This document shows positions 12,309 through 50,425 of a DNA stretch of 64,000 bases, in pieces. This DNA comes from Phialocephala subalpina (Eukaryota; Ascomycota; Leotiomycetes; Helotiales; Mollisiaceae). Under the pieces are notes generated by a model, which saw only the letters and a list, made by a program, of their open reading frames with translations, was not told the origin of the DNA and searched no databases. Both the position numbers and the translations under genes were made by a program. Position 1 is the first letter of the stretch, and each line of letters starts with the position of its first letter. The DNA is taken from contig FJOG01000018.1 in the NCBI GenBank assembly GCA_900073065.1, positions 1,066,044 through 1,130,043 on the forward strand, given 5' to 3'.

Positions 12309-14248
12309 CTATCCGGGAAATTTGGGCCACGGGGTCGGGCCAAAACAAGTCCTTTTCCGAGCTGGTATCTCCACTGCCACAGTGTAGTTCCGTTTCAAGC
12401 CGGAGTTGGGCTTCGGAGGCTGGGTTTCTGTAGGCTTTGAAGGCTGATGAGCTTCTGGGTCTGGGTATGATCCAGCGTCTCCACGAATTGTCGAGACATC
12501 TATTGTCTTGGTGCTTCGAATTTCATCGATCTCATTAGGCTGCCCACATGTAACGGTAGCTACCTTGCGAGGCTTAATAGTGATTTTGAGCTTCGGTTTT
12601 GAGCTAGACTCTAGAGGTTGATTGTCTGTGTCCTAGCGAGATCTAGTGTCTACACGAAAATCGGGTTCCTCGTCGTTAGGTAAGGGCGTGTGAGCGGCCT
12701 TGTTTTGCAGAGACAAGTAAGGCAACGAGTCAGGAGATCCTAGATCTCCATGCGTGGGAGCATTCGAGGGGCACGCTGCAGGCTCGATACCACCGACTTT
12801 GTCGGTTTCGATAAGTTGTCCACATGCAGCAGCAGCTTCTTTATGACTTCTGAACACGAGATCGTGACGGATACGGCAATGACTGATAAAACCTTGAGCC
12901 TTCGAAAAATCGTCTCGATGACACTCAGAGCAGACAAGCTTAACATACTGGCCATCTGCACGCTTGACAATGGTAGGTCCAGCCTTCTCTTTCGATTGAG
13001 CATAGCCACGGGAGATATCTGGAAGTTTTTGTGGTAGAGGACGTAATCTACTGATAGTTGTGATTTCTTCAGTAAGACTGTGTGTCGTTGGCAGGGCTGC
13101 TGAGACAAGACGGGCTGTTCCCTCAATATCTGGTTCTGTGATAACTTGGTGCAATCAAAGACGGTACGCAAAGTGGCTCACCTCGTCTACTGATCCAGAA
13201 CATTGGATAGCCGTTGCCATTACTTGTCATAACCTCCAGTGCTGCCTGAAGAGTAACGGTATCACCGACCCAACCTAATACTCCATCAGGATACGACCAT
13301 TCGAGATCCTCAATCGCCGGATTGTATTGCCCTGCTCACCAAGATCTCGGAGTCAGCTAGCTTCTTTTGTATGTTTAGAGAGCAAATATGCATGTCTTAA
13401 GAGTGCGTTTGGAGTACAGCAGGAGTGCATCGGAGCAATGCACGCCTAAGACAACACGAAAGAGGGAATAATTCTCCGAGAGATTGATGCTTACACCTAT
13501 TGGCCAACAGGCTGTAGAATGTGTCCCAATCCATGTCCTGTATCTCGAGATGCCCTTTCACGATTTGTCCAATCGCTACCATGTCTTTGGGGCGGCAGCT
13601 GAAGCAATGTCTCTCTCCTTCGCGCTGCACGCGGATGATCACTCCGTCCAAGCTGCGGGTTCCCATTCGTGGAGATGTAATGATGGCTCTGGTGGAATTT
13701 CTCGGCGGCGTTATGGTCGTGGTCTTCAGGATATTGTCATTCTCGTGACTTGGGCGTTCCTGTATTTGCCCCTCCCGTCTTCGTTCCCCCTTCTGTCTTC
13801 GCTCTTCCTCCTATATTCGTTTCATTTATTCCCGTTCTTCCTGTCTTCGTTCCTCCTTCCGTCTTTGCTCCTCCTCCTGCATTCGCTCCTTTTGTGCCCG
13901 CTCATCCTGTCTTCGTTCAAGATCCTTCCGGTTTTGCCTCGCAATGCTAATTATTCTGCCAGCCAGAAATCTCAAAACAGTGATTCCCCATTATTCCGGT
14001 ACACCATCGAAAAGGTTCGGAAACTCTCCCCGCAACTCTGCTATCGCTGTATTGGCCAGCTCTTTGTCGTGATGCGACCTGAAAGTCTTCCCCATCAACT
14101 GATGTCGTCCCAGGATCTTCTTGTATGCAGCCCGTAGTACGACTAACTGATCCTCCGTTATCCTAAAGCCTTTGCAGATATCTTCGTTTCTGAAATTGTA
14201 CTGCCCATCAGCTAATTGATATATATCCTGTTCGGAGGTATCAGACAT
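12309..14248 (-). pseudogene. AHC1-type C2H2 zinc-finger gene with four in-frame stops
   Basis: Three exons (14248-13495, 13331-13182, 13135-12309) add to 1731 nt, exactly 577 codons, and all stay in one frame from the ATG MSDTSEQDIYQ to a final stop at 12309. Four internal stops interrupt that frame: TAA at 13991-13993, TAA at 13826-13828, TAG at 13811-13813 and TAG at 12633-12635. Two lie in a Glu/Gln/Arg coiled coil (RRQEERE*MKRI*EEERRQ) where CAA/CAG is the obvious ancestor. The third exon encodes DGQYVKLVCSECHRDDF..AQGFISHCRIRH, matching the AHC1-like C2H2 finger of a fungal ADA-complex-type protein. Intron 1 is the 163-nt introner-like element; intron 2 is 46 nt (GTGAGC...CACAG). The ungapped frame argues for point mutation (CpA to TpA), not old decay. 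Confidence 0.75.
13332..13494 (-). mobile_element. Introner-like element, copy B (163-nt intron)
   Basis: It fills the whole first intron of the AHC1-type gene, from donor GTAAGC (13494) to acceptor GAGCAG (13332). It aligns ungapped over its full 163 nt with the intron at 49114-49276, about 80% identical by eye (131/163). It contains the pair TCTCGGAG and CTCCGAGA near its two ends, an 8-bp perfect inverted repeat, and GCTAGCTGAC as branch region. Removing it joins LLANR to WQYNPAIEDLEWS in frame. Confidence 0.85.
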
Positions 14249-15285
14249 GTTGGAATAAAGGATGGTTATAAATGCTCAAGTTGCGGCCGCTGGCCTCCCT
14301 GCACTTCCTAATACATAGGTGAAAAGGTATCGCTTCCGGCGAGTTTCTGGGCTAAGAGGTTAGGGCGGTATTGCTGTTGATTTTGGTGCTTGACGGTTGT
14401 GGGTTGCAATTGCACTTCTCCCGATTTCTAGCCTCGCGGTAGCAGTCTCGGCCCGACTATTTTCCGAGCTGTCTCCTATTATTGGTTTTTCGTCCCCCTA
14501 GCCTTTCTCCCTCTCAACAGCTTGAAGCAAAAACAAAGTCTCAACATAAGCGATAGGACTTATTTCAACTTTGCCGCATAGCTCTCTTTCCGCTCGCTAG
14601 CTTTTTCTGCACTTTTGGCCTCCTCCGCCTCTAGATGAAGATCAACTGACAGAAAGCATCAACTTGAGTGTCCCAACACTGCAGACATCGGATAGAATCC
14701 TTGAGCTAGACTAGGATGTCACAAGAAGCGACTGCCCTCTTTGATTCTTGGCCATTGTTGTTCTTGAGTCAAGTCGCTGTCAAACGTCCTCGACTTCCTG
14801 GTACTTTGAGTGCATGTACCTGTGAAATCTAGGTCCTTGCCAATGCGTCTTCCTTCCACTTTCTCATTAATTACAACGCGTTTCTCATCTCATTCATCTC
14901 GCCTTCATATAACGGGCGTGTCCCTGTTGTTGATAATGTCAAATTCTATGGCCAGAAGTGCCGTTTCAAGATACTCCGTCATAGGTTCAGATCTAGATGC
15001 CCAATTTCTTTCAGAATTCTCGATGAATGCCGTTTGTCATAAGTTGCGACAACGATTCCCAGTCATTGTCTACTTTCCCGACAGGGGAGCAGCTTGTTCC
15101 AGTGCGGCTTAAATTTACTTCATTCCATGATGCAATACGACCAGTTTCAACATGAAACTATGCTAAGGAAATTATGCAAAGCTTCAATTCAGATGTTATA
15201 GTTCCGACATCCTCCCATATTGCTCAGCTTTAGATGTATATGAGCCTCGATTAGAAATCGAGGATACAATTTCCACTTTGTTGAA
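14249..15285. other. Intergenic; possible decayed coding fragment
   Basis: The minus strand at about 14900-15000 reads MTEYLETALLAIEFDIINN before stops. It looks protein-like but I cannot name a family. Otherwise nothing is seen. Confidence 0.35.
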
Positions 15286-16901
15286 ATGTCCGTCTCAGAG
15301 CTTTTGGTCCCGAACCACACAGGAAATACAGTGTACACAACACCCGAACAAAGCCCAAGCGCTCTCAATATTCACGATCCGTTTTCAAACCCAGAAGGAC
15401 TGGATGAACTAGAAGAGGAACCAAAGGATTCGAAGGAGGTACCACGCGCCAACGGCAGTCACCTACATGGTCAAAATGGAATAACCGCTTCGGCAGCACA
15501 GAAAGGACCACCAGAAATACCCGCAAGACCAGCCGGCTACGAGCTTTCCACTGCTTCTAATGTGAAGGAGCCACCACAAGTGCCAGCGAGACCACCTACT
15601 CAGCCTTCAGATCGTCCTCCAAAACCAACAACACCTGACCTCCCAAAAAGAGCAGCGCCTACGCCCTTGAGACAACGTATTACAATTCCGCCTCCAACCA
15701 TCGTTGAAGACGACGTTTTCACGTCCGAGGAAGGCGGACCTGGTTCATTGAAGTACACGAGAGATCCACAAAAGCTCATTGCGTACTTAATCCCTCTAGC
15801 AAAACCGAAGTTAAGCAAAAACACCGAGAATGAGGATGCATTGCCAGAGGTAGGTGCAACCCCGCTTTGACGAATCAACAGATTGACCGATGTACTTAGC
15901 GATATCTGATATACACACCACCACAGCCACACTTCCTGAAGCCTGCGAAAGGAGTGAAGGAGCCGAAGAAACATTGGTGCAAGAGGAAACTCCAAGAAGA
16001 GGTACTGTTACACTTGCCTTGTTAACTCAATGTTGATGACAAGCTAAACGCCAAACCAGGTACAAAAAGCAAAGAAATATGACGGAAATACAATGTCGTG
16101 GAGAGGCCTACACAGCAAAACGACCAAAGGCATAATGTGGGCAATTCACCGCATCAAAGCAACCGACATCGTCTTCCTAGGCCGAATCCAAAACAAAGGC
16201 AAGAAACTGGTTTCTCTCCAGCTTAGACGAACCCTCCAACTAAGAAACATTCAGAAGTCGACGAAATCGTCCTCGTCTTCCCGAGCAGCGTAACGCATAC
16301 CATCCCAGAAGTCCGCTCCGAATTCATCGCTCAGATCAACCGCACGAAAAAGAAAGCTTCGAAAGAAGCCGCCATCTCCACATTCCTGCTTCCGATAACA
16401 CTCGCAATCGACACCTTCGCGGCGGTCATCTGGCCTTTCGGCGGCCTGTTTGAGATCGATGCAGTTTGGACGTATGCGTCTGTAAAGGGCTGGCACACCT
16501 CTCTCGTCATGCAAAAGCGTCTTGGAGCCCGTGATTCGAGATTCGGGATATATGGAGGAAAAGAAAGGAATTTGTATATCCGGTTCCAGCAGGATGAGAA
16601 GATGAATGTGTTGAGGAGGTATCTCGCGGAGTGTTGTCATAAGAAGGATCCAAAGATGTTTGATAGTGCGGGGCCGCCGCCCACTGAGACTCAGGTCCTG
16701 AATGCGATTGGATGGGCACCGGTGGTTAGGGGTAAGACAGGAGGTGTGAGGGTCGAAGGAGAGAATGGGTGGGATGATGAGGAGTGGCAAAGGACAGCTT
16801 TCAAAAATGATTTCAGGGCAACGATGGAGAAGGGGGCGAATAGTTGGGGAAAGTGGGCTGGGAGATTTGAGAAGAATCCGGAGAAGGTGTTGAAAAAGTA
16901 G
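15286..16901 (+). CDS. Conserved fungal protein of unknown function, possible frameshift
   Basis: Exon 1 is 15286-15849 (ATG, MSVSELLVPNHTG), with Pro-rich repeats (PPEIPARP, PPQVPARP) and the TRDPQKLIAYLIPLAKPKL block. Exon 2 is 15900-16001 (RYLIYTPPQPHFLKP). Exon 3 starts at 16060 (VQKAKKYDGNTMSWRGLHSKTTKG). The remaining conserved part (SEVDEIVLVFPSSVTHTIPE, LLPITLAIDTFAAVIWPFGG, to the stop at 16901) lies one frame away, open from 16227. No good intron reconciles 16060-16200 with 16227-16901; only a weak GTCTTC...CTTAG 56-nt intron would. So the gene either has a 1-nt indel or uses that poor site. The family is a widespread fungal hypothetical protein with one hydrophobic segment. Confidence 0.6.
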
Positions 16902-17161
16902 AGATTTGTGGCAGCATCAGCCGAGAGACGATGTGTTTGAGCAAGCCGAAACCTTGCCATCATGTCTTAGCTGTCCACGCAGGAGGCTAGGTATGTGTTT
17001 TGCGAGACAAACATTCATACAGATCTATATAGCGCTTTCGGTACACCATAGGATTACACGAGCACTTACAACACACTCAGTTCTCCAATCCAGACTTCGA
17101 GATATCGTACACTGGTTTCGTAGACATCTAGTCTAAGTCTTCCAGTTCAGACCCATACATG
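16902..17161. other. Convergent 3' flanks
   Basis: Between two converging 3' ends; nothing else seen. Confidence 0.4.
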
Positions 17162-18155
17162 TCAGAGAACTTTCATCTCGCCACCACCAAACTCAAACTG
17201 CTTTTTCTCTGCTTTCGACATCTTGGTGATATCGTACTTCTTTCCGCCCGGGTGGTTGCGTTTGAAGCTCGGCCACTATCACAAGATCAGCTCAACTCCC
17301 ACTTAAGGTTCCATAAGCCCACCTCTTTCTTCTAGTCCGGCTTCTTCGCTCTTGGTTCAATGCACTCCCTCAACTCCTTCGCATCCTCCTCACTAACACC
17401 AACCTTCCGGAAATTCCATTGCACACCCGCCTTGTCAGCAGCTTGGACGATCTTCTCAATATCGTCAATCCGGTGGTCCGCGGCATCTTCTGGAGGAACT
17501 TGATCATTATGAGGGCGAGAGTGGCTGCGTTTGGAACGGCGGAGGTGGGGGCGATGAGGAGTGTTCGGAAAGGACTTCGAGGACCGTGACCATGAAGGTG
17601 ACGAAGAATAGGAAAATTTCTCCGATACGTTCGCTATCGTCGTTCACTGGGCGGTGCCAGTTGAGGGAAGTTGGTTTAGGCATGAGAAAGGGGACAGGGA
17701 AACGCACTCATGAGGGTCATTAGATCGCCAGCATAGAGCCAGGTCACCAGTCCTTCAACGTAAGACCATTTCTTCAGAAGCGAACCATCCTTCTTGAAGA
17801 TAATCTTGTGGAAGTCTGCAAGCTGCACCGAGGATCAAAAATCAGTCATATTCCAAGACGGGGCAGCGTAGAGGCACATATCAGATTCTCCAAGACCTCC
17901 GTCATCCCATAACCCGCAAAGTCGTTATAAATGTACATTTGGTGACAGTCAGGATCTCTCTTCTCTTGCTCGATAAAGGGAGAGAAGAATGTAGGAAAAG
18001 AGTTGGAGTTCGATAGGACATCTTGAGTGACACGCCTGCTTATCTGGGTATGCTTTTAGCTTGATACGACAAGGAAACTGTTTACCTGCTGGATGGTCGA
18101 TCCTACAGACGCGTCGAAGTCCAATATGACGCGTTCGTGAGGTGAAACGGCATCT
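17162..18155 (-). pseudogene. Conserved fungal gene of unknown function, broken by several indels
   Basis: Coding blocks on the minus strand, in order: DAVSPHERVILDFDASVGSTIQQ, then DPDCHQMYIYNDFAGYGMTEV, LADFHKIIFKKDGSLLKKW, YVEGLVTWLYAGDLMTLM, SERIGEIFLFFVTFMVTVLE, IDDIEKIVQAADKAGVQW and the C-terminal WPSFKRNHPGGKKYDITKMS to a stop at 17162. Several intron acceptors survive, but the donor after TEVLENL reads ATATGT instead of GTATGT. At least two frame changes occur between about 17520 and 17460, and the N-terminal exon is missing (stops directly upstream of 18155). I recognise the layout as a conserved fungal hypothetical but cannot assign a function. Indels predominate here, unlike the transition-type stops in the other dead genes. 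Confidence 0.7.
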
Positions 18156-18610
18156 TATTAATTGATGCCAATTTCTGATGTATCGAGCGTTTCATGTAAC
18201 TATCAGATTTCATTTCGTAGGAGCGGCAGTGCAGTCATGAAATGTCGATTTCTTCTTCGCTAAACAAAATACCCTTTCTTGCCCCCCCTATTTATTGACG
18301 AGCGTGTCTAATATCCATGCCACTTTCCGTGACTCGAGTTTCCATACCTTCTTAGCACAAATTTGAGTCTGCGAAGCGTTGAAATGCAAACTTGCATTGA
18401 CTTCTGGTAATTTCACAGCTTTTTGGATTCTACAGTCATGTGACTGTTAACTCCGAGCGGAAATTTCTTTCCTGATCCGAGTTCTCTTCACGACGTGAAG
18501 CTTGGTAATTCGCTCTCACTGCTCCACTATGTCGCACTCGCAACGTTCATCTATATCATGACCTTCTAGATGCCTAGAACCCTGGATTATATAAGGGAGA
18601 ATACGATTCT
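18156..18610. other. Promoter region of the Zn2Cys6 gene
   Basis: Intergenic. The only element I can support is the TATA box at 18588. Confidence 0.4.
18588..18595 (+). promoter_or_regulatory. TATA box (TATATAAG)
   Basis: A consensus TATA box lies 16 nt before the first ATG of the Zn2Cys6 gene (18611). That is too close for a leader if transcription starts about 30 nt downstream, so the working start may be the second in-frame ATG at 18650 (residue 14), which is still ahead of the zinc cluster. Confidence 0.45.
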
Positions 18611-20479
18611 ATGAGCGTGCCTCACTTTGCTGACATTCTTCACCCGAAAATGCCGCCACAACGACACCTTCCTCCTTCAACGCATCCCAGAGTACGCCAG
18701 CGCAGCGCAAGAGCCTGCGCACCATGTCGGAAACGAAAAATCAAATGTGATGGTACAGATCCCTGTGCTGCTTGCGTTGGGTATGGATATGATTGTGTTT
18801 ATAATAATCCTTCTCCTCGAAATCCCCCGCCAACAGCAGCGGCAGCTTCGCCGTCTGTTCCGGTCATAAACACGGGAATTTCGAAACCCATAGCTCGCGC
18901 AGCTACAATTACTTCGGTAGAGGGATCAGAGAATCATGAGCCTTGGATCCCAGGAACCGCAATCACTTTGGGAGAGCCGTTAAAGTATAGGGAACCTTTC
19001 ATCTCTTCAGAGAGTCTGGTGGAATGCCCAACTGGGGATCCGCTACTTTTGAGAGCTCTCAAAACAAGATTTACAAGCATTCACAGCGCCATTGCAGTTC
19101 CGAGAAAGCTGGGAATATCTCTCGATATGCAGAATCCTCCACGACTTCAATCGTTTGGATGGAATCCAGGAGCGCGCTCTGAACCCAAAGTCACTCGTCA
19201 AGGGAGTTTATGCAGCATCATCTCGCTTGACCAGATAAGGCAATATTCGGATATCTACTTCAATGAGGTTCATCCATACTTTGGTATTTTGGAGAAAGAT
19301 ATCTACTCGATTTGTTCAGAAGAGTTTTGGCGCCAACAGAGAAAAGGCATGGACTTCGAAGCGTGTATGTGTGGGGTCGTTGCTCTAGGCTCCTACTTCT
19401 CACCTACGCCATTACCTACGGAAGCTGAAGTCGTGGAACACGGAAGGTATTTGTTGGACTTCACGATTGCACACGCGCCTGCGAACCTTTCGATAAAGCA
19501 TGTTCTTGCATGGATGTTGAGGGCTATCTATTTACGATGCACGACTAGACCACATCTTTCCTGGATCGCTTCTTGCAATGCAATGCATATCGCAGAAGCA
19601 ATTGGTCTACATCGAGAAATCAGCGAGAACCCGGTCGTCTGCGAGCGCGCCAATGGTCGTCAACAAATCGAACCTCTAGAAATAAGCCTTCGTCGAAGAA
19701 CATTCTGGGTCGCTGTTGCTTTCAATCAATTCTTGGCTTCGGAGTATGGCCGGACTAGGGTTAATCTCGACATGATCAGCTGCAAGCCTCTACAACCTCA
19801 AGCTGGAGATTTCACCCTCGATGTTATAAACATCATGACTTCGGTCCCCAAATCGCAGGACTTCACGACGGCAGACATCTCCGAGCTGCTTCAATCGCTG
19901 AGAAAGACATCCGAGATCCCAGTCAAGGGCGCATTCCTTGGGCTTCTCAGAGCTGACGCATGCTTCTGTATCTATCGAATGCTGCGATGCACAAATGTGA
20001 GCCTTCCTATTTGTCGAGCAGATGGCTTGCTGGACGTCATTCGAGTCGCCTTGGATGGAGTAACATTCCTCTCCACTATGCGACAAGCTTGGTGGAATCT
20101 CATCGGCACTCCTTTTCATTGTATCTGTGTTTTGTTGGCACTTGGCACATCGGAAAGCTTCGGGATGATTCCACATGCTCTGGAAACTTTGAAAAACGCC
20201 GCGGCTTTATACAATTCTCACCTTTCGAACGAGGCATTGAGGACAGCACACGCGCTCGTTCAAGGTGCGCGAGACAAAAAGAAGCAAGAAATTGAAAGCT
20301 TGGATCGAGGACTTGATGCTGTAGGCGATCTTCCCCCAGACCCTTCTCCTCAGACATCTGCGACCGACAATGCCTCATTTTTCGAATACAACATGGGTGG
20401 TGGTATCGGAGGGTTCATGGAATTTCTTGATTTGAGCAATTACTATGGCAACGAACAAGATGCTTTCATGCTCACGTAG
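18611..20479 (+). CDS. Zn2Cys6 transcription factor, 622 aa
   Basis: Intronless reading frame from ATG 18611 to TAG 20477. The binuclear zinc cluster is at residues 36-62: C36-x2-C39-x6-C46-x5-C52-x2-C55-x6-C62, with the basic RKRKIK between the second and third Cys. The middle region carries a fungal_trans (MHR) domain recognised by YFNEVHPYFGILEKD and the later ALGLHREI-type helix (IAEAIGLHREI, then LRRRTFWVAVAFNQ). It should act as a nuclear DNA-binding activator or repressor. The next gene, in the same orientation 760 bp downstream, is an MFS drug transporter, so local control of efflux is plausible but is inference. If translation starts at M14 the product is 609 aa. Confidence 0.92.
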   Translation: MSVPHFADILHPKMPPQRHLPPSTHPRVRQRSARACAPCRKRKIKCDGTDPCAACVGYGYDCVYNNPSPRNPPPTAAAASPSVPVINTGISKPIARAATITSVEGSENHEPWIPGTAITLGEPLKYREPFISSESLVECPTGDPLLLRALKTRFTSIHSAIAVPRKLGISLDMQNPPRLQSFGWNPGARSEPKVTRQGSLCSIISLDQIRQYSDIYFNEVHPYFGILEKDIYSICSEEFWRQQRKGMDFEACMCGVVALGSYFSPTPLPTEAEVVEHGRYLLDFTIAHAPANLSIKHVLAWMLRAIYLRCTTRPHLSWIASCNAMHIAEAIGLHREISENPVVCERANGRQQIEPLEISLRRRTFWVAVAFNQFLASEYGRTRVNLDMISCKPLQPQAGDFTLDVINIMTSVPKSQDFTTADISELLQSLRKTSEIPVKGAFLGLLRADACFCIYRMLRCTNVSLPICRADGLLDVIRVALDGVTFLSTMRQAWWNLIGTPFHCICVLLALGTSESFGMIPHALETLKNAAALYNSHLSNEALRTAHALVQGARDKKKQEIESLDRGLDAVGDLPPDPSPQTSATDNASFFEYNMGGGIGGFMEFLDLSNYYGNEQDAFMLT

Positions 20480-21240
20480 GGAAATGCAAGTTGTCCTTGT
20501 TTGCAGACCTAGCTAGGATAGTCTGTGACAAGAGGTATAGCTTGAGTTAGGAATAGGAAAAATCGAATCTTGTGTGTTGAAGAACCACTTCAGGAATAAA
20601 ATTTTTTTTTTTTGGAGAAATCGTGGATACGCAGAACAGGTGGTGAAGTTTATCGGACGGATGATTTCAGGTCCTCGCCTCATCTTCAATATTTATTGTG
20701 CTAATGGAGTTAGAAATAAGTCCTCGGCCTTTCTCGCCAAGGTAGACGGCCCGTCCGGGTGCAACGGGTAGGACGATCCGCTGCCGGAAGGCCAGACCAA
20801 CAAGCTAAAGGACTTGCTTATTAACCTCAACACGCGTTGGATACCAAGATCTATGGAAATAATGATAAATCCGATGCTGTCTGGAATTGTTCGTACCCTT
20901 GGAATTCATTCCGACGATTCTGCAACTGACTAATTGCTCTGGGGTGTCATCTCTTCCTATAGCCTAGTGGCCCACCCACTCTTCTTGAACATGGAGTACA
21001 TAACTGCGTTGCCGTACTCTCTGCAAGAATCAATTTGTGCCAGTACAGGTTCTTTGAAGGACTAAACTCAAAACCTTTGTACTCCGATTATTATTATTTT
21101 TTTCTTCTTGACCGTCAAGATTGTCGTTTTTATACCCCACACTCAACTTGCTGCCTCCCAAAGCCGAGAATAAGTCCACGGACATCACCCAAACTATAGC
21201 AAGAAAAGAACCTGCACTTCGAAGAAGTCGATCCCTCAGA
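20480..21240. other. Intergenic between regulator and transporter
   Basis: Contains the 3' UTR of the regulator and the promoter of the MFS gene; a T9-10 run at about 20602. The in-frame extension upstream of 21241 has no ATG. Confidence 0.4.
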
Positions 21241-24700: not shown

Positions 24701-24729
24701 CGGAAACTAATGAGGCAGGTATAAGGTAG

Positions 24730-37475: not shown

Positions 37476-37810
37476 TGGATTGCGTTGTCTGAGGTGCGTC
37501 AAGCTGTATCGAGATGACATGGGGATTTTCGAGTCCGTTCTTCGTCGACGAGGTCGTATGCATTGTTCTTGAGAGCTTCGTTCGTTGTGTTGTCGTATCA
37601 AGAGTGAAGTCGTATCGTCGGAAGGTCTGCGGTTGGGGCGATGATGTTTCCTGAGCCCTGAACGACGGAATCCTAGATGTAATGTTGGGATATCCGTCAG
37701 CCAAAGGCTGACGTCAAACCGTGCGCGCTCTTCTGTCCCCCACCTACTGCCAGTGACCACTGGCACGGTATAGTCCAGGATCGGTTCGGCAGTGACGGGG
37801 ATTTTATTGT

Positions 37811-38216
37811 CGGACAACATTGAGAGCATACTCCAGAATAATTTCTGGGCAGCAGACCTGTGTCCACGGAAATGAAGAGCACGCACCTTTATGAACAATG
37901 ATAAATGACTTCGAGTCGCAGATGATCGAGTCATGTTGGGGCAGATCGTTCTTTTCGGACAACTCTTAGAGCTATCAGAAGATCAATTTCTGGACAGCAG
38001 ACCGGCGTCCATTGATTTGAAGAGCACGTACCTTCATAAGCAAGAATGAGCGACTTCGTATCGCAAGAGACCGAACCATGTTAGGTCTTGTCGTTCTTGT
38101 CGGACACACTGGGACTAGTTGACGTGTCCATTGATCGAAAGCGCAATACCCATACGAGTAATGATGAGCGACGTTGTATCGCAGATAACTGAACTATGTT
38201 GGGTACTGCTGCATGT
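37811..38216. repeat. Tandem array, 145 + 145 + about 116 bp
   Basis: Units start at each CGGACA: 37811, 37956 and 38101. The first two are exactly 145 bp and align without gaps at about 72% identity by eye. The third is shortened by an internal deletion. Each encodes, on the minus strand, a PNM.RS.A.RS...L..K-like peptide; in the two 145-bp copies it is followed by a GTRCGT donor. Confidence 0.8.
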
Positions 38217-38400
38217 TCTGATACTTGTCAAGAGTCATGAAGATGGTGGAGAGTAGATAGAAAATGAAAAAGTGGTTGAGATTGATGTTGGGAAATGGAT
38301 GAAGGAAGAGAGTGAGAAAGAGGGAAGCTCCTCTTAAGTAGGGCTCTGTGTCTATCGTGGCTGCCATGATCGGAAGTTCCATCTGGCAGCGACGATGGTT

Positions 38401-42012: not shown

Positions 42013-42758
42013 TGGGATTTTGTGAGGGAACAAAGTACCTAGACTCGCTTGTAATATGCTGGTGCGATGCCTCATTCAGGGCCTCGGTCGACGGTCAGCA
42101 ATCAGTGTGAGCTAGAAACGCTGGGCGGTTCATCCGATGTAATTTTTGTCCATTACTCAACCAATCGAAGGGCATATTATCTAAATATTGCCGAATGTCT
42201 CAGTCCTTTTCGAGCTCTGAGTTTTGGACGTCAGCCGGTCAACGTCCCCTACCCCACCCGACACAAACCTGGGCACGGGACGCAAGTCTCTGCCCCCCAT
42301 GTCGTCACTAAAAATGTCTTCACGTCGATTGCGAGTTTGCGATGAAACTAAAATCGAATGATACACGGTACCTATGGACTGATTTCTGTCGTAGAAGTAA
42401 CCTCCGAGACCAAACAACCCCCCGTTTCAGAAAGGGGGAAATCGCCTGATTTTAAGCGAGAATGATACAACCAAATACTTCATTGAACATTCTCTTCCCA
42501 GCTCGACTTCATTTTGGCTTCGATGTCTTGATATCACTTTCTCGACCTCCTACTCTATTCATAAAGTGCAGGCACGACATATCACTTTTCTCAATTACCA
42601 CGGCACTCTTTGTCTTAAATTTTAACCTTTCCATTCTTTTCCTGGCTGCGCCAAATCATTCATTATAGCGACTGCAAACTACAATATAGCTTCGGCTCCT
42701 CTACCTCTGTATCGATCAAGACTTCACCAATACCCGATCCCTCATCACGATTCCAACA
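42013..42758. other. Intergenic, nothing recognised
   Basis: Short open frames only; no supported feature. Confidence 0.4.
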
Positions 42759-43330
42759 ATGCCCGCCCTCGACCCCCAAATCCTCCAGCGAATGAGCGAA
42801 GTTGGCTCCCACATCATATCAGCACGAGCCAGCGTACCGACACACGAAATAGTAGAGGCGTTTCTCGTCAGTAAGTTCTCCTGTTATTTAGTTCTTGATT
42901 TCCTAGACTTACAAAAGAGTAGTCTTTTTCTCTGTCTTCGGCGTTGGAGGGGCGATTATCTACGCTGCTACGAAGTGTTAGACGGGAGTACGACATCGAA
43001 GCGAGGAGAGAAGCTCATTCGATCGCCTGAGGCTAGCATATGCGGGCGCAGAGGGGAAGATATGGTTCTCCCTGGCTGGCACGGGGATCGCAATCTACTG
43101 GAGTTGGAAGGCTGGACATGTATATGGATAATGAAAGAAGAATAGAAAGCTGTCGTCGCTAGAATATCATTGGTAGAGGCAAGGAACAAGCAAATCGAAG
43201 CGAAGGTAGAATTGATGAAAAGGAATGTACGAGATAGTGAACTACATTACTCCTGTGCAAGGCCCGTAGAGCAGTTTTCAAGTTCTGAGGGACTCGGCAG
43301 GCTCTGACCCGATCATTGTCGGGTACGCTC
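42759..43330 (+). pseudogene. Possible small membrane protein gene, disrupted
   Basis: ATG 42759 (MPALDPQILQRMSEVGSH) leads to a short splice candidate GTCAGT...CCTAG (42871-42910). This joins to TYKRVVFFSVFGVGGAIIYA (a TM helix), a TAG, and in the same frame KIWFSLAGTGIAIYWSWKAG (a second TM helix). A coiled-coil-like stretch AVVARISLVEARNKQIEAKV lies further on in another frame. The pieces read as one former protein with two TM segments and a coiled coil, now carrying a stop and a frame change. Family not recognised; a real short product from the first ORF is possible. Confidence 0.3.
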
Positions 43331-43661
43331 AATATTTGGTCCACAGGTCCTCAGGCCTCCTTCCCAGCACCATGGTACTGCCTCATGTGATAGGTCCCCA
43401 TCACCAATGTCGCCAGTTTCCGAATCGTCGTCTTCTGCTTCTTCATCTTCGACAACAGGCCCCGCATCGGCGCTGCTGCTTCCATTCAAACTTCTCTCTG
43501 GTGTCGGCTAACGTCTCCAGAAAAGTCGCTACTGACGTATTCTAGCATTCTATCTGGGTATATCCTACTTCTTCACTGAAAAGTACTTTATCTCCCTTGA
43601 CTCAGTGATCAATCGAGAACCCTCCATCCTAGTCTATTTACATTGCTCCTCCAAACCCAAA
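43331..43661. other. Intergenic, nothing recognised
   Basis: Ser/Gln-coding low-complexity DNA; no gene supported. Confidence 0.35.
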
Positions 43662-44057
43662 ATGAAAGAAGTGATCAATTATGCCGGACCAAAAGTGGAA
43701 ATCAGAGAATCCCCCATCCCAAAACCAAACGACGACCAAGTCCTCATCAGATTCATCGTTTCGGGCTCGAATCCCAAGGACTGGAAGGCCCCAGAATTTG
43801 CGGCAACGTTGACTGAAGATCCAATATACGAGCTCCTGAAAGGGATGAAGGCTGCAACAAATCAAGGCGATGATATCGCCGGTATTGTGGAGAAGGTTGG
43901 GGCTAATGTTGTTGAGTTCAAGGTATGAATGACATGTTGGAGAGACTTCTGAGGATGGATGGAAGCTAATTAGAGAAAGCCAGGGGATCGAGTCGCTGCT
44001 TTTCATAAGATGTTGACCCCTCACGGCTCATACGCAGCCATCTACCAAGAATTTTGA
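43662..44057 (+). pseudogene. Truncated quinone-oxidoreductase-like dehydrogenase (N-terminal fragment)
   Basis: Exons 43662-43922 and 43980-44057 (57-nt intron with GCTAAT branch) encode 112 aa. The sequence is a typical N-terminal GroES-like domain of zinc-type/quinone oxidoreductases: KEVINYAGPKVEIRES, VLIRFIVSGSNPKDWK, GDDIAGIVEKVGANVVEFK, GDRVAAFHKMLTPHGSYA. The family is about 340 aa; here a TGA at 44055 ends it before the Rossmann domain, and no continuation follows. Splicing signals are intact, so truncation may be recent. It could still make a short product. Confidence 0.7.
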
Positions 44058-44146
44058 CAGAAGGATACTATATAGAAATATTATAGCAAAAGTGTTATCT
44101 AGAGTATAGAGAAATAGACCGTATTTGAATTCTAATTAAGTGAATG

Positions 44147-45662
44147 TTAGCGTGAAACATCTCCTACAGCTTCTTCTGCACAGCTACTACACAAGCATAC
44201 TATCAAACTTTCCCCAAAAACTCTCCTCCAAAGTTCTTCAGTGTGGACTCTGGCCCTCCCAACTGATTCTAGGCTAGTGCTCAGGCCAGACACTCTATGA
44301 TCCACGACAGTTCCGCACTGTTTCAAGCTGTATTGGAAGTATGCTGCAGGATATATCTGGTGCGTATGCCAAGCGAGATCAATATCCCAAGGAGGACTAA
44401 CGGGGGTCTCTGGATACAATCGTTGCAGTTGGAAGAATTTTGCATACCTATGGACTGCTCGGCTTAGAGTGTACATTGCGGTGTCAAGTTTGGCCCATTC
44501 CAGGTCACTCTCGAATTGGAGGAAGATTTGGTGCCGCTCAATTGCATCGTACAGATCTAATCCGAAGTCGGGAGTTCTGTTGTTCCAATATCGGTCTAAG
44601 ACAGAAAGTTCGGCCGGTGACAATAGGTCCTTCTGTTCGTTGATCCACCTTTCATTGTCCTGTCCGCCCCAACCTCTTTCGGTTGCCTCGTCCAAGAGCA
44701 TCTGAACCTTCTCAAAGTCACAAGTAAGCCGACTAGGGGTTGCTTCTTTCACTCCCCAGAGGGTTGTCCAGACGAATTCCATAATTGAGCTTACCAAGCC
44801 CTTCTTCCTACTATTCAAAGCCTGCGAAAGAGTACCAGGCAATGGGCGACCCGAACTTGTCTCGATGAGGTCGCTCCTCAGCTTAGCAGCAGGTAGACTC
44901 CTATGATCCAAAATATGTCCACATCCTTGACACCTTTTCAGGAACTTGGCATCCAAAAAGCCTTCTCCTGATAGCAGTCTCCATGGTGTTGTATTATCTG
45001 CGGAGCAGAAGGGGCAGACAAGTGTTATCGCCTCTCCCAATTTTGAGCTCAGTGTTTTCTCGAAGCTGAAATAGGATCCGGTATTCTTTTGGAAATGCTC
45101 CTGCGCATCCAGGGACGGTTTGAACTGGTGTGTTTCGTCATCAATGGTTTCAAGCTAGCGCACTCTTAGATTTCTTATATTTAGAAGTTCGATGACCGTG
45201 GTAGAAGTGCGGCTTACTAAAGCTATCCATGGAAATTCAGCTTCCCAGAGCCCCCTTTTCCCGGTCCGCATACAATCTTCCCAATAAATCAAAGGAGTAA
45301 GCAAGTAGCTATGCCACACTAGGAGGACATCTGCTCTTTTATTAGCTAATTTGATTTGAATAGACATTCGTACTTGCAAACCTACCTAGCGGAGGAAGAT
45401 TGTCCACCGTTAGAACAACATTACTGCAGTCAGTGAAAGTGTTCCACCACAACTTGAACCTTTCTGTAGCCAGCGCAAGATAATGTTGCTTGATTTCCGC
45501 ATTTTTAGTGAACGGCATCCCGGAATTCCTTGCCTTCGCCGCCACTAAGGCTTCGCCGTCTTTTATAAGCTGGGCAAAGGCTTCGTATAGCTTGATGTGC
45601 ATCATGCAATGGGATGCATTTGGGTACGATGAGTGATCTTGGAGTCCAGACTTAAGATCCAT
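44147..45662 (-). CDS. GRDP-like (DUF1399) protein, 465 aa
   Basis: Exons 45662-45386, 45330-45218 and 45154-44147 give 1398 nt. ATG 45662 is the first codon (MDLKSGLQDHSSYP). Two family hallmarks are present: DVLLVWHSYLLTPLIYWEDC in exon 2 and WDIDLAWHTHQIYPAAYFQYS near the C-terminus. These are the paired WH.(H) repeats of glycine-rich domain proteins. Between them lies a zinc-ribbon-like CPFC...CQGCG pair. The C-terminus is Cys-rich (LIVCLCSSCAEE). Fungal relatives are often mislabelled alpha-ketoglutarate sulfonate dioxygenase; their biochemical function is not established. Intact. Confidence 0.85.
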
Positions 45663-46356
45663 AGTTGTCCGTTTGAACGTTTCAGTTTGGGAAGCTTGTA
45701 GCAGCGGTATTCTGCAGAAGCAAGAGAAAGGGGGTCTTGCTCGGGATTGGGGGGAAGGAGCTCTATTTAATCATCAGTGTGTGACATAGGTCTCCAATGA
45801 TGCCAGGATGTCTTAAATAGCCCGGAATGTATGCCTATTATTGGGACGCTTAATTTTTCTACTGTAATTTTCCACTTCTATTCAAGGGTTGACTGTATTG
45901 CTTCTTCCACATATTACCATTTATTACAAGAAACTTAATTGGATAATACTGTCTTTTTAGCCAGCCCATTCAATTTGAATAACTTTACTGTAATTGCATC
46001 GTTAGCTTAGAATCCTGCGAGTAGTAGTAAGTAAATAGAGGGTGTACTTCTAGGAAATTCGATTATTTGATTGGCTAGAAGCCCTGGTTTTACACCTTGA
46101 AGGACCCCTTAGCGGGGTGGCGTTAGAAGTCGAGAATATACCTTTGTAAGAAGGGGCGTAGTAGAAAGAACGTCTGTTCTCTTGATCAGCGATTGCTACT
46201 CTATTAGGAATATACCGGTCGGACTAACTATCATTTCCTCGCGGAACCTTTTCAGTAACTCGTGTGCCTATAAAAGCGACGGCTTGTTCGGATAGCAGGA
46301 GAGACTAGAAGCCGGGTTTGGCTAGCCGGTCTTAGGGATGAGTAGTTGTACCCTTG
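45663..46356. other. AT-rich intergenic
   Basis: Promoter side of the GRDP-like gene; no feature beyond A/T-rich stretches at about 45840-46080. Confidence 0.4.
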
Positions 46357-47032
46357 CTATCCCTTCGTCTGGCAGCCATTGCCCATACTAGCAGGGATGT
46401 ACTCCTCCAGTAAGACGCGGAGTAAGAATAGTAAAGTTACGAGGCAGTTTTAGTACTACTACTTAGAAATTAATGCAGTTGGAAAATAGAAAATGGAAGG
46501 TCGTGCAATGCTGTTGGAGTGCAGTTGGAAAATGGAAGGTTATGCAATGCAGTTGGAAAATAGAAAATGGAAGGTCGTGTAATGCAGTTGGAATGCAGTT
46601 GGAAAATGGAAGGTTGTGCAATGCAGTTGGAAAATAGAAAACGGAAGGTCTAATGCAGTTGGAATGCAGTTGGAAAGCGGAAGGTTGTGCAATGCAGTTG
46701 GAAAATAGAAAATGGAAGGTCGTGCAATACAGTTGGAATGCAGTTGGAATGCAGTTGGTATGCAGTTGGAAAATAGAAAACGGAAGGTCGTGTAATGCAG
46801 TTGGTATGCAGTTGGAAAATAGAAAACGGAAGGTCGTGTAATGCAGTTGGTATGCAGTTGGAAAATGGAAGGTCATACAATGCAATTGGCACTAGAAATA
46901 GGAAAGCCTATGTAATGATGGCATACAAGGGATAGATACTTTTGCTGTAACCTTTGTATTTAGGATCTATAGAAGTAGGGTAGTAAGGAGGCCCTTGCTA
47001 GCGTGGTCAATGGCTGCCAGACGAGGGGATAG
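46357..47032. mobile_element. Inverted-repeat-bounded element carrying a minisatellite (676 bp)
   Basis: The left arm 46357-46396 and the right arm 46992-47032 are reverse complements over about 40 bp with few mismatches; both contain CGTCTGGCAGCCATTG or its complement (TCGTCTGGCAGCCATTG on the left). Between them is a minisatellite (46473-46888) and no coding capacity. The structure fits a non-autonomous terminal-inverted-repeat element. No target-site duplication was recognised. Confidence 0.6.
46473..46888. repeat. Compound minisatellite
   Basis: Interspersed blocks: a 10-bp ATGCAGTTGG(A/T) unit repeated about 20 times, alternating with AAAATAGAAAAYGGAAGGT or AAAATGGAAGGT followed by YRTGYA. 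The period is about 35-50 bp and irregular. The minus strand stays open for 140 codons only because the repeat lacks stops in that frame. Confidence 0.85.
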
Positions 47033-47459
47033 GCTCATTAGAGAATCCAATATTGGATTATGGCATTAATTAGAGAATAGGAGTAGAGTTGTCGCAAGTA
47101 TAATCCTTGAGACGAAGTATACACTCGCTCCGTCTAAGGCATCGGTTGCGAGTGCCGGAGATAAGGTAAGGATTAAAGAAATTTCTGCATCGAATGTATA
47201 ATCGTCCACCTTAAGCTACACTAGACTTCCGCACCCTCCGCAACTCACCAGGTTCCTGCTCCTTCCCAATTTGTAACCAAGTGTTGGTTATCTACTAGAC
47301 AAGCAGCTGATGTCGAGGGATTTTCTACAAGTACTCTCGAATTCTCGTCCTTAATGGCGAAATACCCACACTCAGTGCGAGGCTCATCAATACAAACCTC
47401 ACACTAAGATTATTTCTCGGCCGAGCTCTCTCTTCGACAGTTATAAGAATCACTTCATC
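47033..47459. other. Intergenic, upstream of the peptide gene
   Basis: No TATA consensus near the ATG; nothing else recognised. Confidence 0.4.
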
Positions 47460-47709
47460 ATGCCTCCTCAGGGACCTCAAGTCAAAAACCTCGGGGTGTT
47501 CGTACTTTTATTCGCTGCCTTGGCTTCGCTCGCTGGAGCAAGTCCTCTTCCACATCCATCCGATGAAACTGCAGTCGTCGAGACGAGTGATTGCTCAGAA
47601 GTTAGGTACGGTTTTCATTTCACCCTCGTCATCAAATCAGTGATACTGACAATAATATAGCAAGAGAGAGCTGATGTATCGCTGCAACCATGGCGGATGC
47701 CTCTGCTGA
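47460..47709 (+). CDS. Secreted precursor of a possible Kex2-released Cys-rich peptide, 64 aa
   Basis: Exon 1 is 47460-47605, exon 2 is 47661-47709; 195 nt in frame. The 55-nt intron has donor GTACGG, branch ACTGAC 10 nt from the acceptor, and acceptor ATAG. The product has a signal peptide (hydrophobic core LGVFVLLFAALASLAG, likely cut near GAS-P). An acidic 20-aa pro-region follows (SDETAVVETSDCSEVS), then KR at residues 50-51 and a 13-aa C-terminal peptide ELMYRCNHGGCLC with three Cys. That layout (signal, acidic pro-region, dibasic site, short Cys peptide) is typical of Kex2-processed peptides. I know no matching family. It is not an alpha-pheromone precursor, as those repeat the peptide. 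Confidence 0.55.
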
Positions 47710-48167
47710 ACACATATCGCTACAGCCACACCAGATGTCTCTATTGGATGCAGTTGGATAGCTGGTTAGCTGGTTAGGAAAATACGAGATTGGAGAGATG
47801 CCAAACGTTGTTTCGTGTTATTGTCTGAAGTTCTTTCAGAGCCACACTCCTTTGTATTCAGAGCTCTTGCTCTTAAAACTAGGGTTGATCAATTTACTTT
47901 TGGTCTCTTAACTCCCAGTCGGTGACATATCCAGTCTCCCTCACGGAAATATAATACGATACCCCACCGATCCGGATGTGACAGTTACCTGCGGATAGGG
48001 CAGGAGTTCGATGCCGAAGAAAGAGATGATTCCATTTAATGCTGAGAGGAAAGGATAGCAGATGACGGACGGGAATACAATACCGGCTCGACCGATAACC
48101 CGCCATGAGCCGTGGGTAGAAACTACCAAATCGCCCTTATGAGCGACAACCATGAGCACCTTTTATA
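47710..48167. other. Intergenic, no supported gene
   Basis: A minus-strand hydrophobic open frame (about 47941-48153, ATG 48153) has no similarity, and its TATA-like sequence is too close to the ATG. I do not annotate it as a gene. Confidence 0.35.
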
Positions 48168-48239
48168 TACTGGGCGGTACGTGTATACTCAGTGGTGCGT
48201 GTGTACTGGGTAGAGCATATGCACTCAATGGTACATGTG
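48168..48239. repeat. 18-bp tandem repeat, four copies
   Basis: Four consecutive 18-bp units, TACTGGGCGGTACGTGTA (48168), TACTCAGTGGTGCGTGTG (48186), TACTGGGTAGAGCATATG (48204) and CACTCAATGGTACATGTG (48222). They are diverged but exactly in register. Confidence 0.75.
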
Positions 48240-48282
48240 CATTATACAATGTTTTTTTCCCCAAATAAAGTGATTTCTTAAA

Positions 48283-48338
48283 TTAGTAGTTGAGTGGGTG
48301 ACCATCAGCGAATACCCACTATCGTATGTTTTTTTTTT
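48283..48338 (+). pseudogene. 5S rRNA 3' fragment (truncated 5S pseudogene)
   Basis: TTAGTAGTTGAGTGGGTGAC, then CATCAGCGAATACCCACTATCGTATG and a T10 run, match the 3' half of fungal 5S rRNA (consensus TTAGTAGTTGGGTSGGTGACGACCAGCGAAT...TGTATGTTTT) including the Pol III T-run terminator. The 5' half, with the box A/IE promoter, is absent: upstream is the unrelated T-rich sequence after the 18-bp repeat. Confidence 0.75.
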
Positions 48339-48901
48339 GACATATTTTTGGTGTTTGGTGCTGTGGTCAGGGACGAGTTTTCTGATGTCCAGCTTGGCTT
48401 ATGTAAGCGACGACGATGTTGACGGCGCGAGCTCCTCTACCGTACAACATCTATTTTTGCAGACAGCTTTTACTCAACAACCAATTGGAGTCTGCGAACT
48501 TTGATGAAAGGAGCTACACTGACGCCGAAATGGAAGTACGAATCGGCAAACCTGCCTCATCTCGACCATGGAGTCAATTCCGCGTCACTACCCCGCGTCT
48601 CGACACCAATGGAGCTTAAACCCCAGATCATCACCAAGGTCAAAAAGATGGCCCGAACTGGCAGCTTCTGGCGGATCCTACGCCGACGTTTTCCCCGGAA
48701 ATAGACACGTACAGCTTTTCCGTACCGTGGTCTGGACGGGACTTGATCAACAACATGCCACTCGACGGCTCCCTTTTCGCCGACGAAATGGAGTGACCCC
48801 TCACTTCACCAGCTTGGCTGGGTATGGTATAAGAGACGATGTACCTACATCTGCTGGAGTGTGCTATACATACTAAACCAATTGCAAGATAATAACAGAC
48901 A
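48339..48901. other. Promoter region of the alcohol dehydrogenase gene
   Basis: Several overlapping open frames without similarity; no supported element. Confidence 0.4.
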
Positions 48902-50425
48902 ATGAGAGCAGCACGATACTACGGAATCGAGGATATCAGAGTTGAGGAGATCCCAGAGCCAGTCTGCCAGGAGGGTCAATTGAAGATTCGACCTGCCTTT
49001 GTTGGAATCTGCGGGACAGGTACCCACATTCTCATCCTCAAATTCTTCAAGAGACTTTCGGGCACTGAACTGACATTCACCAGATCTCCACGAATATCTC
49101 GGCGGACCGACATGTAAGTGCCAATTTCTCGGAGAATTATTCCCTTTTTCAGCATGTCTCTGGAGTGCATTGCTCCAATACACTCCGGCTGTGCTCCAGA
49201 CGCACTCCTGAGACATACATTTTTACTCCCGAGACGCACAAAAGAAGTTAGCTGACTCCGAGATCTTGACAAACAGTTGCCCCAGTCAAACCACATCCCG
49301 TCACGAAAGAAACCCTTCCGGTAACATTCGGACACGAATTCTCCGGCACAGTCCTCGAAGTCGGAAAAGGCGTCACAGCTTTCAAGCCAGGGCAGCACGT
49401 CTCGATCCAACCGACAATCTACGACGGAACTTGTGGTGCCTGCAAGCACAACTTCGAGAATGTATGTTACAACGGCGGATTCGTAGGACTATCAGGATGG
49501 GGCGGAGGACTGAGTGACGCAGTAACGGTTCCGGCTTCTTACTGCCTCCCATTACCGGACAACATACCCCTCGATGTGGCGGCGCTGGTCGAGCCTCTTG
49601 CTGTTGGCTGGCATGCCGTCAGACAATCTCCTCTCAAGCAAGACGACAACATCTTGATTCTGGGAGGAGGACCAATCGGTATAGCAGTCATACAAGCGCT
49701 TCGAGCACGAAGCTGTGGCCAGATAATCGTCAGCGAGTTATCTGCCTCTCGCCAACGATTCGCCAAACAATTCGGCGCAGACACGATCCTAGATCCGCGG
49801 AAGGTCAATGTGGTAAAGGAAGTACAGAACCTCACCGGCGGTGAGGGAGTGGATATCGTGTTCGATTGTGCGGGAGTGGCGGTTGGTTTGGAGGCTGCCT
49901 GCAAGGCTATCAAAGTAAAGGGTACTGTAGTCAACGTCGCTATTGTGAGTCACCCCGTCATCTCCCGTCCTGTGCGACATTCGGAAGAGCAGAAAGTCTG
50001 GATTTCCCGAGGACATTCACCGAGGCAGAATGTCGCTTGTACATGGGTACATTCAGCTAATTTTTTGGATAGTGGGAAAAAGCCGTTCCATTTCAGCCCA
50101 ACGATCTAGTGTTCCGCGAAGGGAGGTATATCGCATGCTTAGGTTACGTCCAACAAGATTTCAAAGATGTTATCGAAGCTATTTCATCCGGTAAAATCAT
50201 ATTTACTTTTGCCTTTTATTCACCCTGAGAATTTCCCGAGATTTAGCTCAGGGGCAACTGCTGCCCGAAAGTCCCCACCACTGCCTGACTGACAATCTGA
50301 CAGGGAAAATGTCACCGGGAGCAATGATCACCAGCAAAATTTCGCTCGAGAATGTGGTTGAAGATGGGATCAAGGAGTTGATCAAGAATAAGGAGAAACA
50401 TGTTAAGGTTTTGGTGCAGATATAA
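48902..50425 (+). CDS. Zinc-dependent alcohol dehydrogenase (butanediol dehydrogenase-like), 351 aa
   Basis: Five exons give 1056 nt: 48902-49019, 49084-49113, 49277-49944, 50073-50190 and 50304-50425. Start MRAARYYGIEDIRVEEIPEP. The catalytic zinc site is formed by GICGTDLHEYLGGP and FGHEFSG. A structural-zinc lobe CGACKHNFENVC is shorter than usual, with three Cys visible. NAD binding is by ILGGGPIGIAVIQAL; the C-terminal part has WEKAVPFQPNDLVFREGRY and VVEDGIKELIKNKEKHVKVL. This is the (R,R)-butanediol/polyol dehydrogenase branch of the MDR superfamily; the exact substrate is not readable. The 30-nt exon 2 is followed by the 163-nt introner-like element, whose removal joins GGPT to FAPVKPHPV in frame. 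Confidence 0.9.
49114..49276 (+). mobile_element. Introner-like element, copy A (163-nt intron)
   Basis: It occupies all of intron 2 of the dehydrogenase gene, from GTAAGT at 49114 to AAACAG at 49276. It aligns end to end without gaps to the intron at 13332-13494 of an unrelated gene, about 80% identical. Most of the differences are transitions. It carries TCTCGGAG (49127-49134) and CTCCGAGA (49256-49263) as an 8-bp inverted repeat, plus internal GGAGTGC/GCTCC and CTGGAG/CTCCAG pairs that could fold. The branch region is TTAGCTGAC. Confidence 0.87.

What the first reader, a model, noticed from the sequence alone, without database searches (positions are those of the whole stretch)
13332..49276. 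Two near-identical 163-nt introns in unrelated genes: introner-like elements
Intron 13494-13332 (minus, AHC1-type gene) and intron 49114-49276 (plus, alcohol dehydrogenase) are both exactly 163 nt and align ungapped at about 80% (131/163 by eye). Most of the differences are transitions. The exons around them are unrelated. Both start with GTAAG, keep CTCGGAGAATTATTCCCT and end GCTGACTCCGAGATCTTG..CAG. They carry the 8-bp inverted repeat TCTCGGAG/CTCCGAGA, and both lie in sense orientation. Introner-like elements that spread as introns are established for some Dothideomycetes; a family here would show active intron gain in this genome.
Basis: partly seen in the sequence, partly recalled or inferred. 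Interest (0 to 1): 0.88.

Follow-up and report, generated by a model that had tools for sequence, protein, structure and literature searches.

The report
Self-spreading introns in a helotialean fungus
The two look-alike introns belong to a large family of introns that has copied itself into many unrelated genes of this fungus, at a preferred short target sequence, which makes the long-debated birth of new introns open to direct study here.

Summary
Observation confirmed to the base: 131/163 identities, 24 of 32 differences transitions. The genome holds many more copies. I recovered 59 full-length family-1 introns, plus 34 and 30 places matching two sister families. Joining the flanks restores open reading frames (35/59, against 6/59 unspliced) and protein domains (7 of 10 products). 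Closest copies are 98.8% identical and sit in unrelated flanks.
In relatives, apparently unspliced ORFs run through two of the sites, so those introns look like gains. These are introner-like elements (ILEs).
Two features depart from ascomycete introners in what I read: a near-terminal inverted repeat (14 pairs in family 1) whose outer arms match within families, and a family-specific target, T|G(G) for family 1 and mostly AG|G for families 2/3. Unexplained: family 1 uses T|GG mostly in Trp codons (phases 2/18/2 against 249/231/240 background).
No target-site duplication was found. RNA-based copying is favoured but not shown.

The parts
13332..13494 (-). Family-1 introner-like intron A (163 nt), phase 1, junction codon T|GG (Trp)
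49114..49276 (+). Family-1 introner-like intron B (163 nt) in an ADH / butanediol dehydrogenase gene, phase 1, junction codon T|TT (Phe)
56651..56787 (+).
   Evidence: 30 of 30 candidates match, the query included
13474..13489 (-). 5' arm of the near-terminal inverted repeat of intron A (intron positions 6-21)
13337..13352 (-). 3' arm of the near-terminal inverted repeat of intron A (positions 143-158)
49119..49134 (+). 5' arm of the near-terminal inverted repeat of intron B (positions 6-21)
49256..49271 (+). 3' arm of the near-terminal inverted repeat of intron B (positions 143-158)
49252..49256 (+). Probable branch-point motif CTGAC (CTAAC in some copies), just 5' of the 3' arm; inferred by motif
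   Evidence: sequence; the motif itself is recalled
48902..49019 (+). ADH exon 1
49020..49083 (+). Ordinary short intron; the ORFs of several relatives start in, or read in frame through, what looks like its counterpart
49084..49113 (+). 30-nt ADH exon 2, left between the ordinary intron and the inserted element

Best explanation
These are introner-like elements: short, non-coding spliceosomal introns that multiply in the genome and create new introns when they land in exons. SHOWN: many similar introns in unrelated genes; GT..AG borders in nearly all; open frames and, in 7 of 10 tested, a protein domain across the joined flanks; no target-site duplication found; mostly sense coding context; a preferred T|G(G) target; apparent absence at two sites in relatives. 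INFERRED: the element brings both splice sites, so it is removed seamlessly in any phase. Its near-terminal inverted repeat (positions 6-21 with 143-158) lies inside the donor and between branch point and acceptor, so it can hold the two intron ends together in the RNA without covering the splice sites. The excised RNA is then most likely put back into transcribed genes, by reverse splicing or by ligation at a DNA break, and copied into DNA (about 0.6 for the RNA routes together). A DNA-level non-autonomous element is the main alternative (about 0.25). The confidence given is for the introner-like reading, not for the route.
For: Copy number: (pattern GTAAGNNNNANNTTCTCGGAG: 99 sites against 13 for the reversed control). 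Splicing: joined flanks of 150+150 nt open in 35/59, against 6/59 unspliced, 9/59 reverse complement, 14/59 for each shifted join and 0.16 of 840 random joins. The ADH junction has no gap against 6ie0 or a Mollisiaceae protein. In 7 of 10 spliced products a Pfam match spans the junction; one of these (MFS) is below Pfam's cut-off. Sense: codon usage favours sense in 42 of 43 well-framed copies; 7 of the other 16 have upstream sense frames of at least 178 codons. Recency: closest pairs 98.8% identical, 12 of 59 copies with a neighbour at 0.98 or more after rounding, and no shared 11-mer in 100-nt flanks among the top 40 pairs. Gain: relatives read through two sites. No TSD. Stem: 94.1% of cells paired in helix 1 of 50 copies; outer arms pair within a family but not between family 1 and families 2/3; fold z-scores -3.07 and -3.01.
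Against: No RNA-seq, so splicing is not seen directly. DNA of the relatives' contigs was not seen; that their ORFs are unspliced is inferred. Seven of 39 ADH homologues begin at residues 53-58, just after the site, so an intron there is not excluded for them. The codon-usage test left 16 of 59 copies undecided: 8 of the 16 score higher in sense, and 6 of the other 8 have a positive antisense score above the sense score; three of those six (L040, L035, L069) are among the 7 with long upstream sense frames, and 1 of the 43 well-framed copies does not score higher in sense. For the RNA route: the T|G bias is not what reverse splicing at proto-splice AG|G sites predicts. Inverted repeats can equally serve a transposase. 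Covariation within family 1 barely exceeds shuffles on some measures (pairs changed on both sides 6 against 5.0, 153/500 shuffles as high). The excess of G-U over A-C type changes is small (30 against 20, and 29 against 21). Pairing of the element with its target was not supported (mean rank 0.44 against 0.5).
Confidence: 0.88

Rival explanations
1. The family is a non-autonomous DNA element (MITE-like or another transposase-driven element) whose near-terminal inverted repeats are bound by a transposase or replicator; it evolved splice sites at its ends and lands at T|G(G).
For: Near-terminal inverted repeat (14 pairs in family 1; paired outer arms in all three families). Strong, family-specific target, which is typical of enzymes. 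Most introner families outside ascomycetes look DNA-based (PMC9860276, passages).
Against: No target-site duplication at any offset tested. The repeat is subterminal, not terminal. 42 of 59 copies have codon-usage support for sense and 7 more a long upstream sense frame; none is shown to be antisense, though 10 remain open. No autonomous partner was sought.
Confidence: 0.25
2. Excised intron RNA with paired ends is ligated into double-strand breaks during repair and copied into DNA, as proposed for Xylariales stwintrons; the T|G preference reflects the breaks. (One of the RNA routes counted in the best explanation.)
For: Same architecture: short inverted repeat near both ends with the 3' arm between branch point and acceptor, no TSD (PMC12403724, Results parts 1-2 of 3 and Discussion; here).
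Against: Random breaks should give no exon bias, as reported for those stwintrons; here -1 is T in 47 of 59 and +1 is G in 53 of 59. The two sister families prefer a different site.
Confidence: 0.2
3. The similar introns come from gene or segment duplications or gene conversion between paralogous genes, not from mobility.
For: None found.
Against: Host genes are unrelated: the seven spliced products with Pfam matches hit Atg22, GH92, ABC transporter, CPSase, carboxylesterase, MFS (below cut-off) and phosphoribosyltransferase. None of the 40 closest pairs shares an 11-mer in 100-nt flanks.
Confidence: 0.01
4. The introns are ancestral and were lost in the relatives.
For: Loss is common in fungi in general (recalled). 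The gain test covers two sites only.
Against: Copies are up to 98.8% identical. At the ADH site 13 of 39 relatives read through, 12 of the 13 while keeping what looks like the neighbouring ordinary intron.
Confidence: 0.03

Closest known systems
Introner-like elements of Dothideomycetes (van der Burgt et al. 2012, recalled and cited through others; Collemare et al. 2015, PMC4457414: part 1 of 4 of the text and passages)
   Same: Near-identical spliceosomal introns in unrelated genes, several families per genome, species-level gains, copies up to 98-99% identical in two species.
   Different: Host is probably a helotialean fungus. A clear near-terminal inverted repeat. Strong T|G(G) site preference; I saw no such report in the parts read.
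Sister stwintrons and cropped sister introns of Hypoxylaceae/Xylariaceae (Fekete et al. 2021 PMC8469720, abstract and section 3.6; 2025 PMC12403724, abstract, Results parts 1-2 of 3, Discussion)
   Same: Near-terminal inverted repeats, 3' arm between branch point and acceptor, seamless insertion without TSD, recent gains.
   Different: Ours are single introns, not nested. Repeat sequence unrelated to GUAUAAAAAC. Their sites are reported unbiased in exon sequence and phase; ours are strongly biased.
Introner survey families (Gozashti et al. 2022, PMC9860276, passages only)
   Same: Family of more than five sequence-similar introns; mostly in genes.
   Different: Ascomycete families there are described as having no TIRs or TSDs; these families have an inverted repeat that, by my reading, would count under that paper's criterion (6 nt or more, searched within 20 nt of the intron ends).

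Membership tests
Introner-like elements (ILEs) | Near-identical introns in unrelated genes of one genome | tested here: met
   59 full family-1 copies, closest pairs 98.8%, unrelated flanks in the top 40 pairs
Introner-like elements (ILEs) | Removed as GT-AG spliceosomal introns | tested here: met
   By frame and protein alignment only; two of 59 copies have mutated donors
Introner-like elements (ILEs) | Splicing seen in RNA | not testable with these tools
   No RNA reads available
Introner-like elements (ILEs) | Position absent in relatives (gain) | tested here: met
   Two of two sites examined, of 59 copies, through ORFs of relatives, not DNA
Ascomycete introners as described in PMC9860276 | No target-site duplication | tested here: met
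   2-5 nt at 15 x 15 offsets, nothing above threshold
Ascomycete introners as described in PMC9860276 | No terminal inverted repeat | tested here: not met
   14 pairs between positions 6-21 and 143-158, 94.1% of cells paired in 50 copies
[D1,2] stwintrons | Internal intron between donor G1 and U2 of an external intron (a G before the first GT) | tested here: not met
   -1 is G in 4 of 59 copies
Xylariales NTIRE-bearing (stw)introns | Near-terminal inverted repeat with the 3' arm between branch point and acceptor | tested here: met
   branch point by motif only
Xylariales NTIRE-bearing (stw)introns | NTIRE sequence GUAUAAAAAC or a close variant | tested here: not met
   Arms are UGUCAAuuUCUCGGAG / CUCCGAGAucUUGACA
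Cut-and-paste DNA transposon (MITE) | TSD plus inverted repeats at the very ends | tested here: not met
   No TSD; repeat starts 5 nt inside each end

The most novel reading that the evidence does not exclude
Insertion, or survival after insertion, of family 1 depends on the reading frame. The introns mostly split codons of the two one-codon amino acids, Trp (T|GG) and Met (AT|G): 24 of 43 framed copies, 15 of 29 in the strict set. The target therefore differs by family and is read in a translation-linked or codon-constrained way, which no intron-gain model in the papers or passages I read predicts.
Probability: 0.3. Interest if true: 0.9.

Novelty: new variant of a known kind. Interest (0 to 1): 0.74.

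Why it matters
How new spliceosomal introns arise is a long-standing question, and few lineages show it in progress. Here is a probable Helotiales genome with three sister intron families, recent-looking copies and at least two sites where relatives look empty. It adds a near-terminal stem and a strong, family-specific target, and with them a test between RNA-based and DNA-based models. If the Trp/Met codon link holds genome-wide, it is a new clue to what the insertion step reads.

Tried and rejected
Stwintron: rejected, G precedes the donor in only 4 of 59 copies. Target-site duplication: 2-5 nt at 15 x 15 offset combinations; nothing reached the reporting threshold (z above 3.5 and more than 3 matches). 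Guide-like pairing of element with target: not supported (mean rank 0.44, 8 of 59 below 0.1). Link of stem subtype (UG or CA at positions 6-7) with GG at the target: not significant, p 0.12. Codon insertion (that the element brings its own T..GG): rejected for one site; Trp is at that place in 115 of 120 listed relatives, Leu in 5, and human CPS1 aligns Phe there without an indel. Motif erosion after insertion as the cause of the Trp/Met link: not supported by the phase-2 sites (my reading). Known RNA family: no Rfam match in the window at gathering score. Literature look-up of the core motif: 0 papers. One search failed on a file format and was redone.

Rows dropped: of 75 unique profile hits, 59 kept (90 bits or more, both ends placed), 16 dropped as partial, weak or of sister families. 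The ends of five of the 59 (L013, L053, L055, L057, L059) were set by hand in the script. Alignment A2 was given 50 of the 59, leaving out the eight copies of 135-144 nt and L053. The phase table uses 43 of 59 (100 nt or more open on both sides). One of these 43, the ADH site, is assigned phase 2 by the script although the protein shows phase 1; it was corrected only in the strict set of 29. Of 120 listed ADH homologues I compared 39.
Full report
OBSERVATION. The two segments are as described: 163 nt each, ungapped, 131 identities, 24 of 32 differences transitions. Their flanks are unrelated.

COPY NUMBER. The window is part of a 68.1-Mb genome in 119 contigs. Intron A matched all 40 candidates scored, of 77 found. 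Intron B gave 42 matches from 40 scored of 80, two of them short reverse-strand pieces. The 19-nt core has 106 sites with up to 3 mismatches, against 11 for the reversed pattern. GTAAGNNNNANNTTCTCGGAG has 99 sites with up to 1 mismatch, against 13. A profile search of 85 fetched loci gave 75 unique hits, of which 59 are full family-1 introns. Of the 56 sized, 41 are 163-165 nt and eight are 135-144 nt. Two sister families share the ends but differ inside: family 2 (about 150 nt; 34 of 34 candidates match, the query included) and family 3 (about 134-145 nt; 30 of 30, the query included). Many of these matches are partial. Comparing the coordinate lists by eye, I found no shared place, so at least 123 places are known. 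Family 3 has a member in the window at 56651-56787.

THEY BEHAVE AS INTRONS. Joined flanks (150+150 nt) are open in 35 of 59 copies. Unspliced sequence is open in 6 of 59, the reverse complement in 9, joins shifted by one or two bases in 14 each, and random joins in 0.16 of 840. The ADH product aligns with no gap at the junction to PDB 6ie0 and without any gap to a Mollisiaceae protein. In 7 of 10 spliced products a Pfam match spans the junction, one of them (MFS) below Pfam's cut-off; three products had no match. Intron B leaves a 30-nt exon between itself and an ordinary 64-nt intron. Codon usage favours sense in 42 of 43 well-framed copies. Of the remaining 16, 7 have upstream sense frames of 178 codons or more. 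So 49 of 59 have some support for sense coding, the last 7 by an open frame alone. In the codon-usage test the 16 split 8 to 8, and 6 have a positive antisense score above the sense score, among them L040, L035 and L069, which are also in the 7. No copy is shown to be antisense.

ORGANISM. The best named homologue of the ADH is from Mollisiaceae sp. DMI_Dod_QoI (93%), followed by Hyaloscypha (86%). I conclude Helotiales (Leotiomycetes), probably Mollisiaceae, from one gene; the placement of these names in Helotiales is recalled.

GAIN. I compared 39 ADH homologues (120 listed, 1,659 found). Thirteen have apparently unspliced ORFs that run straight through the insertion site. In three of them (P0004, P0016, P0020) the counterpart of the ordinary intron is translated in frame, adding 28, 21 and 17 residues exactly after residue 39, and the site ten residues on is uninterrupted. 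Nine start in or beside exon 2 with foreign residues (P0003 at 97% identity, P0012, P0015, P0018, P0021, P0022, P0025, P0028, P0075), and P0032 starts inside exon 2. P0012, P0025 and P0032 lie on contigs of 14-35 kb. Against this, 7 of the 39 begin at residues 53-58, just after the site, from an internal start or after an intron; they cannot tell. The other 19 look like whole or spliced models. The DNA of none was seen. At the CPSase site (locus L013), all 120 listed relatives (180 found) read through. Some are named, spliced models; of four whose ends I read, at least three (P0122, P0124, P0128) end in sequence that looks like unspliced intron. The intron-A site was not tested. Closest copies are 98.8% identical and 12 of 59 have a neighbour at 0.98 or more after rounding, but the median pair is 84%, so many copies are old.

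ANATOMY. Positions 6-21 pair with 143-158 (14 pairs, two mismatches in the middle). In 50 copies, 94.1% of its cells pair; with a second, middle stem included 91.2%. The two outermost pairs exist as UG/CA (20 copies), CA/UG (10), wobble UG/UG (8), mismatched CA/CA (2) and ten others. Outer arms pair within a family but not when family 1 is crossed with families 2/3 (means -4.2 to -4.6 kcal/mol against -1.0 to -1.7; 59, 14 and 13 copies). Families 2 and 3 are interchangeable in the outer arm, and over the whole stem the 2-by-1, 3-by-1 and 3-by-2 crosses are not significant. Within family 1, covariation exceeds shuffles on some measures only (score 1/500, pairs changed on both sides 153/500), and the copies are related. 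The probable branch point CTGAC/CTAAC sits just before the 3' arm. Both window introns fold better than shuffles (z -3.07, -3.01).

TARGET. For family 1 the base before the donor is T in 47 of 59, the base after the acceptor is G in 53 of 59, and the next is G in 32 of 59; there is no sign of a TSD. In families 2/3 the base before the donor is G in 20 of 32 rows, or 19 of 28 after removing four family-1 copies that the script had mislabelled. The family difference is strong (Fisher p 5e-9 for G, 3e-7 for T). Nearly all copies of all families carry the same donor, GTAAG(T/C), so selection for splicing does not easily explain this.

UNEXPLAINED. In 43 well-framed family-1 copies, phase-1 junction codons are TGG in 18 of 21, and phase-2 codons are ATG in 6 of 11. 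T|GG is spread evenly over phases in the same exons (249, 231, 240) but is used 2, 18, 2 times (p 2e-6). In a stricter set of 29 the numbers are 1, 10, 2 (p 0.0012). Families 2/3 do not show it: of 27 copies, 18 could be framed, 11 in phase 0, 1 in phase 1 and 6 in phase 2. The link was found after looking, phase calls have errors (the ADH site is one), and it needs a fresh sample.

MECHANISM. Shown: insertion with both splice sites, in all three phases, mostly at T|G, and seamless at the two sites compared with relatives. Inferred: an RNA intermediate whose ends are held by the near-terminal stem. For it: sense copies in exons, no TSD, the placing of the arms, and a slight excess of changes that leave G-U pairs (30 against 20, and 29 against 21). 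Against it: a sequence-specific target is unusual for reverse splicing and for random breaks.

LITERATURE. PMC12403724 describes near-terminal repeats in Xylariales stwintrons, with no TSD and no exon bias. PMC8469720 reports no site or phase bias. [quoted passage not shown] passages, supplement not seen). Passages of PMC11889510 and PMC8476143 added nothing on such elements. Searches for introner with Leotiomycetes, Helotiales or tryptophan returned nothing that by title and abstract describes such elements. Only openly licensed PMC papers were searched, so this does not show that none exists.

Noticed in passing
   Followed up: yes
L045:1096-1260 and 1488-1651: One gene with amidophosphoribosyltransferase-like sequence (Pribosyltran domain) carries two family-1 copies about 230 nt apart.
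   Followed up: partly
L078:1753-1903 and 2012-2182; L091: Two elements of different families close together in one locus.
   Followed up: partly
L059:1370-1532 (-) and L057:1488-1650 (+): Two copies whose donor GT reads AT and TT; the joined flanks are still open, so an odd donor or a dead copy.
   Followed up: no
L037, L079, L063: Partial family-1 copies that keep the 5' end but lose or replace much of the rest.
   Followed up: no
window 46472-46870: Tandem repeat array built on AATGCAGTTGG units (periods 11, 35, 46, 74, 145).
   Followed up: no
window 37840-38106: 145-bp tandem repeat, 1.8 copies, 76% matches.
   Followed up: no
window 13773-13918: 66-nt tandem repeat about 280 nt upstream, in gene sense, of intron A.
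   Followed up: no
window 59858-61186 (-): One reading frame with both thiamine monophosphate synthase and hydroxyethylthiazole kinase domains.
   Followed up: no
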